Origin: a bacterium
GTDB lineage: Bacteria; Actinomycetota; Acidimicrobiia; Acidimicrobiales; Bin134
Assembly (NCBI GenBank): GCA_026705465.1
Contig: JAPPAP010000025.1
Coordinates: forward strand, 493,566-546,447
DNA: 52,882 nt
Direction: 5' to 3'
Position 1 is the first letter of the stretch; each line of letters opens with the position of its first letter. A program made the position numbers and the translations under genes. The notes beneath the pieces are model-generated. The model had not been told where the DNA came from and did no database searches. It saw nothing but the letters and a program-made list of their open reading frames with translations. Shown in pieces: positions 15,524-18,621 of the stretch.

Positions 15524-16371
15524 TCGATCCCCAGCATTTGGTCGATCACCGCGGCCATCATTTCCTGATCGCGCTCAACCTCCCGGGTTTGGCCGTCGGC
15601 GTCCAGGAACTGCTGCATCAGAGCTACGTGCTGGCCGGTGGCCGAACAGGCCATCATCGCCTGGGTCTCGGTCAACAATCCGGGTTCCACTGGCCCGAGG
15701 GCAGCGTCCACTGCTTGTTTGGCTTTGGCGATGGACAGCCGGGGAGAGGCGGCGATGCGGCGGGCCACCTGAGCGGTGTGGGCTCGGAGCTCATCAGAAG
15801 GCAGCACTCGGTTGACATAGCCAATGGCCGCGGCTTCCTCGGCGGTCACGTCATTGCCTGACAAGACGATCTCCAACGCCCGGCTGCGGCCCACCAAGCG
15901 GGCCAGCCGCTGGGTGCCGCTGGCCCCGGGAATGATGCCCATGGCCACCTCCGGCTGGCCGAGCACAGTGCGAGGTCCGGCGAAGCGCATGTCGAGCGAC
16001 AGCAGAAACTCCGACCCGCCGCCCCGGGCGATGCCGTCAATCATGCCAATGGTGGCTACCCCGATGGTGCGGCACCGGTCGAAGGTGGCCGCGGCAACAT
16101 TGGGCTCGGTCGGCACATCAGTCGCGGCCTCCATGGCCAGGATCTGCTCGACGTCGCCGTGCATCAGGAAAAAGTCAGGATCAGCGCTCTCGAACACCAG
16201 GACGCTGACCTGATCGCCGTCTTTGTTGGCAGCTTCGACCGCGTTGAGCAGTCCGATCAAACCGCCGATCAATGCTCCGTCGACGAGCTGCTTGGGCGGG
16301 TGGTCGATCACCACCCAGCCGATGCCGTTGTCAACGGTCATCGTGAAGGGTCCAAAGCTCTGCTCACTCAT
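15520..16371 (-). CDS. enoyl-CoA hydratase/isomerase family protein
   Basis: This 283-residue crotonase carries both glutamates used by classical enoyl-CoA hydratase: Glu121 in ARGGGSEF and Glu141 in LGQPEVAMG, followed by IIPGASGTQRLARLVG. Hydration of a 2-enoyl-CoA is therefore chemically plausible. Its start at 16371 lies inside the end of the upstream nitroreductase gene (8-base overlap), so the two are translated from one message. The frame remains open upstream, but that part is the nitroreductase gene in another frame. The true substrate is unknown. Confidence 0.83.
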   Translation of the reverse strand: MSEQSFGPFTMTVDNGIGWVVIDHPPKQLVDGALIGGLIGLLNAVEAANKDGDQVSVLVFESADPDFFLMHGDVEQILAMEAATDVPTEPNVAAATFDRCRTIGVATIGMIDGIARGGGSEFLLSLDMRFAGPRTVLGQPEVAMGIIPGASGTQRLARLVGRSRALEIVLSGNDVTAEEAAAIGYVNRVLPSDELRAHTAQVARRIAASPRLSIAKAKQAVDAALGPVEPGLLTETQAMMACSATGQHVALMQQFLDADGQTREVERDQEMMAAVIDQMLGID

Positions 16372-16981
16372 CGTGATCCTCCCACTTGTTCCAATACGCG
16401 ACTTCAGATAGTGCCCTACGGCGTACCGGACCGAACGGCACCGCGGGCCAACCCATAGGGATGCCGCACACGATGTGGACATCGTCGGGAATCCCGAGCA
16501 CAGATCGCACCTCGTCGGCCCGGAAGGTGTGCAGCGTGGTCAGCACTGTGCCCAGCCCCAGGCTGCGCGCCGCGACCAGGAGGTTTTGCACTGCGGGGTA
16601 GATCGAGTGGCTCACCCCCCGCTGGGTGGAGCACACGATGATCAGCACCGGCACTTCGCCGATCTCGCTGGCAAACTTTGCCGCTTTCTCGACGATCTCC
16701 GCCTCTTGGTTTCGCAGCCATTCGGTGCCGGTAGCCGACGGGTTGTCGTAGGCCTCCTGCTGGGCATCGAGATAGAGCTCGCCGAGCAGTCGGCGTTTTT
16801 CAGGATCGGTGACCACCACAAAGCGGGCGAACTGGCCGTTGATGGCACTGGGGGCCCGTATGGCGGCATCCAAGACCTTGGTGATCAGCTCTTCGGGCAC
16901 CGGGTCGGGCCGGTAGCGCCGCACCGCCCGCTGGGTGTGCATAGCCTCGAACACGCCGATTTCGGCGGTTGCATGGTTCAT
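16364..16981 (-). CDS. nitroreductase family protein (FMN-dependent)
   Basis: This 205-residue nitroreductase-fold oxidoreductase starts at ATG 16981 (MNHATAEIGVFEAMHTQRAV). FMN-contacting segments visible are MHTQRAVRRYRPDPVP, AIRAPSAINGQFARFVVV and the C-terminal LGLGTVLTTLHTFRADEVR with GIPMGWP. The N-terminal RRYRPDPVPEELI is typical of the family. It is first in a two-gene operon with the crotonase at 15520-16371. TACTCT lies 8 bases before its ATG. The 61-base gap to the divergent SelW-like gene must hold promoters for both. Substrate unknown. Confidence 0.86.
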   Translation of the reverse strand: MNHATAEIGVFEAMHTQRAVRRYRPDPVPEELITKVLDAAIRAPSAINGQFARFVVVTDPEKRRLLGELYLDAQQEAYDNPSATGTEWLRNQEAEIVEKAAKFASEIGEVPVLIIVCSTQRGVSHSIYPAVQNLLVAARSLGLGTVLTTLHTFRADEVRSVLGIPDDVHIVCGIPMGWPAVPFGPVRRRALSEVAYWNKWEDHDE

Positions 16982-16989
16982 GGGCGCTG

Positions 16990-16995
16990 AGAGTA
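16990..16995 (-). promoter_or_regulatory. candidate leaderless -10 box TACTCT
   Basis: TACTCT on the minus strand ends 8 bases before ATG 16981 of the nitroreductase gene. It is divergent from the box of the SelW-like gene at 17030. Confidence 0.45.
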
Positions 16996-17029
16996 GCGGA
17001 GGGTAGTAGTAGTCGCCCCGCCTCGGCGG

Positions 17030-17035
17030 TAGCCT
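17030..17035 (+). promoter_or_regulatory. candidate leaderless -10 box TAGCCT
   Basis: TAGCCT ends 6 bases before ATG 17042. The position supports translation from 17042, upstream of two in-frame TGA codons, rather than from the GTG at 17105. Confidence 0.5.
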
Positions 17036-17041
17036 GCACCC

Positions 17042-17314
17042 ATGGCGCAGAGGCATCGCATCAAGATCACCTATTGAGTTCCTTGAGACTATTCCGAGCA
17101 CGCCGTGAGCGCTGCCAAGGACTTGTTGCAGAACTACCAGCACATCATTGAGGAACTGACCTTGGTGACAGGTGCGTCGGGCATCTTCGACGTGGAAGTC
17201 GACGGTGAGATGCTCTACTCCAAGTACGCCACCGACTGTCACGCCGACACCGGCGAGGTGTTGAAACTGTTTGCCGAGCAATACGCCCAAGGGGTACTGG
17301 TCTACGGCTCCTAG
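17042..17314 (+). CDS. SelW/Rdx-like selenoprotein with UxxU motif
   Basis: Reading from ATG 17042 through two in-frame TGA codons (17075-17077 and 17084-17086) as selenocysteine gives a 90-residue Rdx-family (SelW/SelT/SelH) thioredoxin-like protein. Its redox motif is UVPU at residues 12-15, after the first beta-strand RIKITY. The rest shows the fold's later elements: helix DYSEHAVSAAKDLL, strand LTLVTG, then GIFDVEVDGEMLYSKY and the C-terminal helix. The family normally has CxxC or CxxU at exactly this spot. Starting at GTG 17105 would remove the first strand and the whole redox site. C66 is the only cysteine. A weak hairpin follows the second TGA. Role inferred: thiol/selenol redox reactions in the cytoplasm, partner unknown. 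Confidence 0.82.
17094..17114 (+). promoter_or_regulatory. weak candidate bacterial SECIS hairpin of SelW-like gene
   Basis: An irregular stem forms around the loop CGTGA (17104-17108). CGC pairs with GCG, then, after a 2-base bulge, AG pairs with CT, and an outer C pairs with G. The loop begins 17 bases after the second TGA and 26 after the first, and its second base is G, as the bacterial SECIS model asks. The pairing is short, so confidence is modest. Confidence 0.4.
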
Positions 17315-17346
17315 CCGCTGAGCCAATCTGGGCGGGCGAGATTGCC

Positions 17347-17358: not shown

Positions 17359-18621
17359 GTGGACGCCGAGCCAGCAGATATCACAGTAGATATCGACCAT
17401 CAGACTCCAGAGTTCGTTGCCGACCGCCACAGCCGCTACCACGAGCTACGGGAGCAATGCCCGGTGGTGTTCAACGAGCACTACGGCGGGTTCTGGATGG
17501 TCACCGACTACGAGTCGGTAGCCCAAGTAGCCCGAGACAACGAGACGTTCGCCCACAAGTACGAGCCCGATGCCCCCGACGGCATCTCCTACCACGGCAT
17601 CTGCGGTGTACCTCGACCGGGTTATATCCCTCGCCAGGGGGTGTCAGAGATCGATGGGCCCGAGCACGCCGATCTGCGTAGGGTGCTGAACCCGCTCATG
17701 ACCATCAATGCAGTGGAGAGCACCCGCTCTCGCATGGAGGCGGTGTCGGCTTGGTTCATCGACGAGATCATCGAGTCGGGTGAAGCCGACCTGGTGCTCG
17801 ACTACACCACCCCGGTGCCCGCCGTGTTGACGCTCGAGATGATGGGCATGGTGTCATCCAACTGGCAGCACTACGCCGACTTCTTCCACGCCACCTCGTC
17901 GTATGAGGCCACGGATGAGCGGTACCTCGGCGCAATCGCCCACCAACCCGACATGTGGGGCGAGCTGCGAGACTTCGCCGCGTTCCGCCGAGACAATCCG
18001 GCTGACGATGTCACTACTGCTTTGGTGTCTTCCCCGCTCGACGGCCGCATGCTGAGCGACGACGAGATCACCGCCATCATGTGGAATCTGGTGGCCGGAG
18101 GTCTTGACACGACGACCTCACTGGTGTCGTGGGGCCTGCACCACTTGGGCACCCATCCCGAGGACCGTTCCCGGCTCATCGAAGATCCGAGCCTCGTTCC
18201 GGCCGCAGTGGAGGAGTTCCTCCGCTTCTACAGCCCCAGCGAGACCCTGACCCGCACCGCCACCCGCGATGTGGAACTGGGGGGCCGCCAGATCCGCCGG
18301 GGCGACATCGTGATGATCAGTTGGGTGACAGCCAACCATGATCCGGCGGCATTCGATGACCCTGGCAAGATCCAGATTGACCGCGAGGTGAACAGGCATC
18401 TGGCGTTCGGTCTGGGCGGCCACCGCTGCATCGGCTCGTCCATCGCCCGCATCGAGTCCGAGCTGATGCTGAGGGACGTGCTGGCCCGCATCGGCGATTA
18501 CGAGATCGATCTCGACAGATTCAAGCCTTATCCAGGCAATCTGCTGATGACCGGCGTGGTGTCGATGCCGGCCACCTTCACACCCGGAACCCGCTCAGGG
18601 GCAGCCGACCCCTTCGCGTGA
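17359..18621 (+). CDS. cytochrome P450
   Basis: This is a 420-residue bacterial-type soluble P450 monooxygenase. The heme-binding loop is FGLGGHRCIGSSIAR with the thiolate ligand C357. The I-helix oxygen-activation motif is AGGLDTTTS and the K-helix ExxR is in AVEEFLRFYSP. The GTG start at 17359 is preceded by TACGCT rather than a ribosome-binding site. No ferredoxin or ferredoxin reductase gene is adjacent, so electron partners must be encoded elsewhere. Substrate unknown; the surrounding acyl-CoA genes suggest a lipid or xenobiotic, which is inference. Confidence 0.93.
   Translation: MDAEPADITVDIDHQTPEFVADRHSRYHELREQCPVVFNEHYGGFWMVTDYESVAQVARDNETFAHKYEPDAPDGISYHGICGVPRPGYIPRQGVSEIDGPEHADLRRVLNPLMTINAVESTRSRMEAVSAWFIDEIIESGEADLVLDYTTPVPAVLTLEMMGMVSSNWQHYADFFHATSSYEATDERYLGAIAHQPDMWGELRDFAAFRRDNPADDVTTALVSSPLDGRMLSDDEITAIMWNLVAGGLDTTTSLVSWGLHHLGTHPEDRSRLIEDPSLVPAAVEEFLRFYSPSETLTRTATRDVELGGRQIRRGDIVMISWVTANHDPAAFDDPGKIQIDREVNRHLAFGLGGHRCIGSSIARIESELMLRDVLARIGDYEIDLDRFKPYPGNLLMTGVVSMPATFTPGTRSGAADPFA

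What the first reader, a model, noticed from the sequence alone, without database searches (positions are those of the whole stretch)
17042..17314. SelW/Rdx-like selenoprotein with two selenocysteines in a UxxU motif
Seen: from ATG 17042 the frame contains TGA at codons 12 and 15, with no other stop until 17314. The conceptual protein has the Rdx-family pattern from first strand (RIKITY) to GIFDVEVDGEMLYSKY. Known: Rdx proteins (SelW, SelT, SelH and prokaryotic relatives) carry CxxC or CxxU after the first strand. Inference: this is a UxxU variant able to form a diselenide. I know of no well-described Rdx protein with Sec at both positions. Two TGAs spaced like the two cysteines of the motif are very hard to explain by sequencing error.
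Basis: partly seen in the sequence, partly recalled or inferred. Interest (0 to 1): 0.95.

Follow-up and report, generated by a model that had tools for sequence, protein, structure and literature searches.

The report
SelW selenoprotein with doubled selenocysteine site
One genus of actinobacteria, known here from environmental genomes, carries a small SelW-family redox gene in which both active-site cysteine positions are UGA codons, both predicted to be read as selenocysteine; the reviews we checked list bacterial SelW with only one, so the gene would let one test how a bacterium recodes two UGAs nine bases apart.

Summary
In detail: ATG 17042, TGA at codons 12 and 15, TAG at 17312-17314, a 90-residue Rdx/SelW protein with UxxU. 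It is not a lone error: 16 of 22 genomes of the genus carry both TGAs, two of them single-contig; 4 have CxxU and 2 have no match. All 19 other genes in the codon set are CxxU, and the tree needs one change. Coding-type substitution upstream and a TANNNT box 6 nt before the start in 16 of 16 place the start before the TGAs. selA, selB and a TGA-containing selD are present, and contig C3 begins inside selC. A hairpin with a CGUGA loop lies 17 nt after UGA2 and 26 nt after UGA1; both fit the published 16-37 nt, but an energy test gave no support. Two-Sec SelW is reported in amphioxus and Ostreococcus; two prokaryotic reviews list SelW as CxxU. So this is a new bacterial variant of a known family. 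Sec insertion, the diselenide and one SECIS serving both UGAs are predicted, not shown.

The parts
17042..17314 (+). SelW/Rdx-family selenoprotein gene, 90 codons plus TAG
17075..17077 (+). UGA1, codon 12, first motif position; Cys codon (TGC 17, TGT 2) in the 19 CxxU genes of the codon set
17084..17086 (+). UGA2, codon 15, second motif position; TGA in all 35 genes of the codon set
17098..17115 (+). candidate bacterial SECIS hairpin: GCACGC / loop CGUGA (17104-17108) / GCG(C)UGC, one bulged C
   Evidence: 6 of 6 pairs in 16 of 16 UxxU genes; at least 5 of 6 pairs in one of two registers in 19 of 19 CxxU genes; loop begins CGU in 35 of 35. Slid over 229 other offsets, at most 9 of 19 CxxU genes reach 5 pairs, but 3 other offsets also reach 16 of 16 in the near-identical UxxU set
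17030..17035 (+). TAGCCT, TANNNT-type -10 box 6 nt before the ATG; predicted leaderless mRNA
   Evidence: 16 of 16 UxxU and 14 of 18 CxxU, against means of 0.01 and 0.07 genes (maxima 1 and 2) at 70 shifted offsets
17078..17081 (+). GUUC, 5' arm of a possible outer stem starting right after UGA1 (unproven)
   Evidence: all 4 pairs with 17131-17134 in 15 of 16 UxxU against 1 of 19 CxxU
17131..17134 (+). GAAC, 3' arm of the same possible outer stem
17359..18621 (+). cytochrome P450 gene, conserved downstream neighbour
   Evidence: PF00067 E 1.9e-30; found beside 16 of 16 UxxU genes, in 0 of 19 CxxU loci within the flank held
16364..16972 (-). nitroreductase-family gene, divergent upstream neighbour (start not settled)
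   Evidence: PF00881 E 1.8e-26; beside 16 of 16 UxxU genes

Best explanation
This is a SelW/Rdx-family gene with in-frame UGA codons at both redox-motif positions, both predicted to be decoded as selenocysteine by SelB, likely guided by one hairpin just downstream of the second UGA. Shown here: the frame, the family, the conservation of both UGAs across a clade, start-site signals, the presence of Sec-machinery genes, and a conserved hairpin at permitted distances from both UGAs. Inferred: the clade arose from a CxxU ancestor by one Cys-to-UGA change at codon 12. Inferred: a ribosome recodes UGA1, moves three codons and recodes UGA2 with the same SECIS element. Inferred from the fold and motif: the product is a small thioredoxin-like redox protein that would cycle between a diselenol and an intramolecular diselenide, instead of the selenenylsulfide available to CxxU relatives.
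For: Family and fold: PF10262 E 5e-16; TIGR02174 above its cut-off; model (Cys in place of Sec) pLDDT 91.3, residue 12 at the end of strand 1 and 15 in the loop before helix 1; the 21 best PDB rows, query-normalised TM 0.75-0.82, are six bacterial proteins, two of them titled selenoprotein W-related; mouse SelW is row 23, E 2.9e-3. Conservation: two TGAs in 16 of 22 genus genomes, 4 CxxU, 2 without a match. Beyond the genus no UxxU was found: one TGA per match in all 46 matching genomes and all 95; the 18 outside rows showing 2 TGA were all fetched and in 18 of 18 the second was the terminal stop, and the 30 loci read as 4 UxxU (all of the genus) and 26 CxxU. Start: UxxU pairs differ 43/60/140 at codon positions 1/2/3 in codons 2-11, against 928/849/1008 in the 60 nt upstream; -10 box. 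Constrained RNA: 0 third-position changes in codons 16-25 and 1 in 11-15, against 38 in 26-62, on the UxxU subtree. Tree: one change, UxxU split 84/76, next to two CxxU genes of the same genus. Machinery: selA 405.6 bits, selB 271.2, selD 356.1 with one TGA in GAGU; C3:1-53 is identical (53 of 53) to the 3' end of the tRNA-SeC of G007; selC over cut-off in 17 of 22 genus genomes. SECIS: loop, stem and spacing of the published model are met for both UGAs; hairpin pairing in CxxU genes is unique among the offsets tried.
Against: No protein, RNA or read data. The free-energy test failed: against 150 synonymous recodings the UxxU region is not unusually stable (median z -0.06 after UGA1, -0.53 after UGA2, 0 of 16 genes at p 0.05 for either), and two control stretches of the same genes score lower (-0.84, -1.01); in CxxU genes 4 of 19 reach p 0.05 after each point, no more than one control. 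The isolated 18-nt hairpin folds at only -5.0 kcal/mol, weaker than the -7.5 limit of the published model, though the 54-nt stretch reaches -12.0. In UxxU genes alone 3 other offsets pair as well. The UxxU split has modest support (84/76; 86% of 200 bootstrap trees) and, with 16 related rows, frozen codons are partly shared ancestry. The anticodon half of selC is missing from the own assembly. Two genus genomes have no match.
Confidence: 0.86

Rival explanations
1. The protein really starts at GTG 17105 and is a 69-residue fragment, as databases now list it, so neither TGA is read.
For: 50 of the 59 database hits are exactly 69 residues long; of the 12 printed, 7 begin at the residue encoded by that GTG codon.
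Against: That truncation is what a gene caller does with a TGA. Upstream codons evolve as coding sequence; the -10 box sits at the ATG in 16 of 16; the Rdx match covers strand 1 and the motif; P0014, a 97-residue relative, has CVPC there. P0002, a truncated relative, falls below the TIGR02174 cut-off that the full protein passes.
Confidence: 0.03
2. UGA2 is Sec as in CxxU relatives, but UGA1 mostly terminates or is read by another tRNA, so the double-Sec form is rare or absent and UGA1 acts as a brake on expression.
For: The hairpin is placed for UGA2 as in CxxU genes. In E. coli a single UGA is recoded at 30-40% (PMC4513850, passages), so two in series would give about 9-16% if independent (my arithmetic).
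Against: UGA1 replaces the Cys of the redox motif exactly and is kept in 16 of 16 members of a clade under purifying selection, and 26 nt to the loop is inside the published range.
Confidence: 0.09
3. Each UGA has its own signal: an outer stem GUUC/GAAC starting right after UGA1 extends the hairpin and makes a UGA1-specific SECIS. (This shares the double-Sec claim with the best explanation and differs only on the signal.)
For: 15 of 16 UxxU genes can form all 4 outer pairs against 1 of 19 CxxU; one change keeps a pair through G-U (L033); it appears in the MFE of 3 of the 4 genes folded over 80 nt from UGA1.
Against: One clade, so no independent gains; L025 breaks a pair; no excess stability over synonymous recodings.
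Confidence: 0.2
4. Sequencing error or pseudogene.
For: Reads were not available; the relatives with titles are all MAGs.
Against: Same two TGAs in 16 genomes, two of them single-contig (G006, G014); third-position-biased change in codons 22-62 (352/117/782).
Confidence: 0.01

Closest known systems
Bacterial SelW-like (SELENOW-like) selenoproteins, Rdx family, PF10262/TIGR02174
   Same: Domain, fold, motif place, SECIS candidate just after the second motif codon; the 19 CxxU genes compared here are of this kind
   Different: Listed as CxxU in the 2008 GOS table and in the 2022 and 2026 reviews (passages read); here Sec is predicted at both positions
Two-Sec SELENOW of amphioxus and Ostreococcus lucimarinus
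   Same: Same family, same UxxU motif (PMC7539508, PMC3473315, PMC2375036; passages)
   Different: Eukaryotic, where SECIS elements sit in the 3'-UTR (passages); here the candidate SECIS is inside the coding sequence
SelL, a selenoprotein family with a diselenide in its redox motif (Shchedrina 2007; only the title seen, in reference lists; its Prx-like UxxU nature is recalled)
   Same: Two Sec residues in one redox motif
   Different: Different family; its diselenide is the precedent for the one inferred here
Other bacterial UxxU proteins: Prx-like, putative mercuric reductase/metal-binding protein, FmdB family (passages)
   Same: UxxU, hence two UGAs 9 nt apart, mostly predicted
   Different: Unrelated or only fold-related domains

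Membership tests
Rdx/SelW family | Rdx domain over cut-off | tested here: met
   PF10262 59.1 bits against 22.6; TIGR02174 42.3 against 34.2; NF041051, an equivalog for a narrower group, 63.4 against 88, not met
Rdx/SelW family | Thioredoxin-like SelW fold | tested here: met
   E5-12, H18-35, E36-44, E49-53, E56-60, H61-64, H72-81; best PDB rows are bacterial SelW-type proteins
Rdx/SelW family | CxxC or CxxU after strand 1 | tested here: met
   Motif position met, but as UxxU by predicted translation
Bacterial selenoprotein genes | In-frame UGA aligned with Cys of homologues | tested here: met
   UGA1 against TGC/TGT in 19 of 19 CxxU genes; UGA2 against Cys in P0014
Bacterial selenoprotein genes | SECIS: 3-9 nt loop, G in its first two places, 4-16 bp stem, 16-37 nt from UGA | tested here: met
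   5-nt loop CGUGA, 6 pairs with one bulge, 17 and 26 nt
Bacterial selenoprotein genes | SECIS free energy at most -7.5 kcal/mol | tested here: inconclusive
   -5.0 for the 18-nt hairpin, -12.0 for 54 nt; not better than synonymous recodings
Bacterial selenoprotein genes | selA, selB, selC, selD in the genome | tested here: met
   A, B, D over cut-off; of selC only the 3' 53 nt, cut by a contig edge
SelL-like diselenide proteins | Diselenide bond formed | not testable with these tools
   needs protein

The most novel reading that the evidence does not exclude
A single in-frame bacterial SECIS hairpin drives two successive Sec insertions at UGAs 9 nt apart, giving the first clade-wide bacterial SelW with a diselenide active site, evolved once from CxxU by a Cys-to-Sec change.
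Probability: 0.6. Interest if true: 0.75.

Novelty: new variant of a known kind. Interest (0 to 1): 0.62.

Why it matters
It is a natural before-and-after pair: close relatives with the same domain and hairpin, one group with Cys and one with UGA at the first motif position. That makes two questions directly testable. Can one bacterial SECIS serve two UGAs 9 nt apart? And what does a diselenide do in a SelW active site? It also shows how annotated databases hide this family: 50 of 59 database hits are 69-residue entries, the length obtained by starting in the SECIS loop.

Tried and rejected
Synonymous-recoding energy test for extra RNA structure: negative for UxxU genes, weak in CxxU genes, and control stretches did as well or better. 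In that script the third helix (codons 18 and 27) was set one base out of register, so its counts mean nothing and are not used; the GUUC/GAAC and UGAR/UUCA columns were in register.

selC in the own genome: the Rfam tRNA-Sec search gave 11 sub-cut-off hits; ARAGORN names the tRNAs at the 8 fetched ones Ser, Leu, Thr, Tyr and Trp; a DNA pattern gave two hits that I did not follow; ARAGORN and cmscan of the selAB and selD regions found one tRNA-Pro. The answer came from DNA flanking a relative's selC.

Possible UxxU outside the genus: 18 rows with '2 TGA' all proved to be CxxU with TGA as terminal stop. says that more matches were not listed. In the phylum search outside rows have one TGA, no stop, or in one case (G543) one TAG; two rows (G436, G451) have one TGA and one TAG; I did not read these. 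Single-TGA rows outside the genus were translated for 10 genomes, the loci (26 CxxU, two of them of the genus), 2 fetched rows (G317, G211), 3 loci and 5 loci; the rest I did not read.

L086 and L087 were printed and match L035 and L036. One search aligned one sequence (L025) at wrong coordinates and was not used.

Paper searches for prior bacterial UxxU SelW: (listings); none found in what I saw. Only open-licence PMC papers are held, so absence from print is not shown. Searches gave passages, not whole texts; PMC12013277 had no hit for SelW terms. TANNNT boxes and leaderless genes: search listing only, the rest recalled. E. coli SECIS-distance work was seen only as a reference.

Full report
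What is there. The window is part of contig C30 of a 3.11 Mb, 40-contig, 95.7% complete genome. Close relatives with titles are MAGs named Acidimicrobiia, Acidimicrobiales or only 'bacterium', one 'marine group bacterium Sva0996'. From ATG 17042 the frame runs 90 codons to TAG 17312-17314 with TGA at codons 12 and 15. Read as Sec, the product is an Rdx/SelW protein with UVPU.

Chance. TGA-N6-TGA occurs 32 times in the window and 5 of these have comparably open frames, so the layout alone proves little. The case rests on homology and conservation.

Conservation. In 198 related genomes the protein is found in 66. Of the 22 genus genomes (own included), 16 have two internal TGAs, 4 have one (G001, G003, G009, G016) and 2 have no match (G011, G021). 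The 46 matching genomes outside the genus show one TGA per match. My codon set has 35 genes: 16 UxxU; 19 CxxU, of which 4 are of the genus, 10 from other genera of the order and 5 from named records. Wider samples: order 397 genomes, 111 with a match, 13 two-TGA, all in the genus; class 395 genomes, 154 with a match, where 18 of 18 listed outside-genus two-TGA rows were terminal stops and the 30 loci kept read as 4 UxxU, all of the genus, and 26 CxxU; phylum 396 genomes, 56 with a match, only the own genome two-TGA. On these samples the variant is confined to one genus. Other phyla were not surveyed this way.

Origin. On a tree built without codons 1 and 12-15, UxxU is one side of a branch (84/76; 86% of 200 bootstrap trees), next to two CxxU genes of the same genus that have TGT at codon 12; the root was drawn at the midpoint, beside a Chloroflexi row. 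The simplest reading is one Cys-to-UGA change. All 16 UxxU genes lie between the same P450 and nitroreductase genes. In the CxxU loci, with about 1.5 kb of flank (3 kb for L090-L094, less where contigs end), no P450 match was found in 19, and the matches to the antisense ORF cover the SelW part, the longest (L043) running to residue 134 of 320. That fits descent of one locus; a move of the gene is possible. No functional link to P450 is claimed.

Start. UxxU pairs differ at positions 1/2/3 by 43/60/140 in codons 2-11, but about evenly (928/849/1008) in the 60 nt upstream of the ATG, compared without gaps. A TANNNT box ends 5-8 nt before the start in 16 of 16 UxxU and 14 of 18 CxxU genes, against means of 0.01 and 0.07 genes at 70 shifted offsets (L094 has no ATG start; L025 starts with GTG). 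This is the pattern of leaderless actinobacterial genes (recalled; papers seen as a listing). The rival start GTG 17105 sits in the hairpin loop.

Decoding. selA and selB are adjacent on C3; selD on C19 has one in-frame TGA in a GAGU motif. selC was not found by the Rfam search, but C3 begins inside it: its first 53 nt equal, 53 of 53, the end of the tRNA-SeC of G007. Its anticodon half is not in the assembly. Seventeen of 22 genus genomes have selC over cut-off.

SECIS. All 35 genes have a hairpin whose loop begins 17 nt after UGA2: 6 of 6 pairs in all 16 UxxU genes, at least 5 of 6 in one of two registers in all 19 CxxU genes; the loop is CGUGA in 33 and begins CGU in 35. As a control, the same test slid to 229 other offsets is met by at most 9 of 19 CxxU genes (mean 1.03); in the near-identical UxxU genes 3 other offsets (-26, -16, -6) also reach 16 of 16, so only the CxxU genes are informative. 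One pair shows G-C in 12, A-U in 3, G-U in 1 and no pair in 3 of the CxxU genes in the unbulged register. Ala codon 21 GCC never changes, and codons 22 and 23 change once each at the third position on the CxxU tree, against 5.84 per codon in codons 26-62. For UGA1 the loop is 26 nt away. Both distances fit 16-37 nt (PMC13188914, passage). In UxxU genes codons 13-25 together have one third-position change, against 73 in codons 26-86 (Mann-Whitney p 0.0005; CxxU 52 against 400, p 0.0099). Codons that are uncommon in ten ORFs of this 65% GC window stand there: TAT is 24 of 95 Tyr, GTT 30 of 343 Val, CCT 32 of 250 Pro, GCT 54 of 480 Ala. Against this, synonymous recodings fold as well as the real UxxU sequences, and control stretches of the same genes score lower; the short hairpin alone is weak (-5.0 kcal/mol). 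A UxxU-specific outer stem right after UGA1 is possible but unproven.

Mechanism. The model (pLDDT 91.3, Cys in place of Sec) matches solved bacterial SelW-type structures, mouse SelW more weakly, with residue 12 ending strand 1 and residue 15 before helix 1. I infer a thioredoxin-like redox cycle with an intramolecular diselenide; SelL is the precedent, known to me from its title and recall. Partners, substrate and yield are unknown.

Novelty. A two-Sec SelW is published for Ostreococcus lucimarinus (2007) and amphioxus (2012), and the UxxU motif is named for both in 2020. For prokaryotes, the 2008 GOS table and the 2022 and 2026 reviews list SelW-like as CxxU, while UxxU is listed for other families. 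I therefore call this a new variant of a known kind.

Noticed in passing
G000:C3:1-53 (L150:1-53): The assembly breaks inside selC: the contig holding selA and selB starts with the 3' 53 nt of tRNA-Sec, so the tRNA-Sec family search reports no hit over cut-off in this genome.
   Followed up: yes
window 16364-17326 (-): A 320-aa antisense ORF from TTG overlaps the whole SelW gene; only its inner part is the nitroreductase, so automatic annotation could hide SelW.
   Followed up: partly
L128-L139, L141, L145, L146: All 15 loci read from a group of about 1 Mb genomes of the same class (f65/g156) carry a CxxU SelW, so Sec decoding seems to be kept in very small genomes; their Sec machinery was not searched.
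   Followed up: partly
window 17030-17035: The -10 box/ATG arrangement suggests a leaderless selenoprotein mRNA, with UGA1 only 33 nt from the 5' end.
   Followed up: yes
G192:C139 and G192:C207: One genome of the order has two SelW copies, each with one TGA.
   Followed up: no
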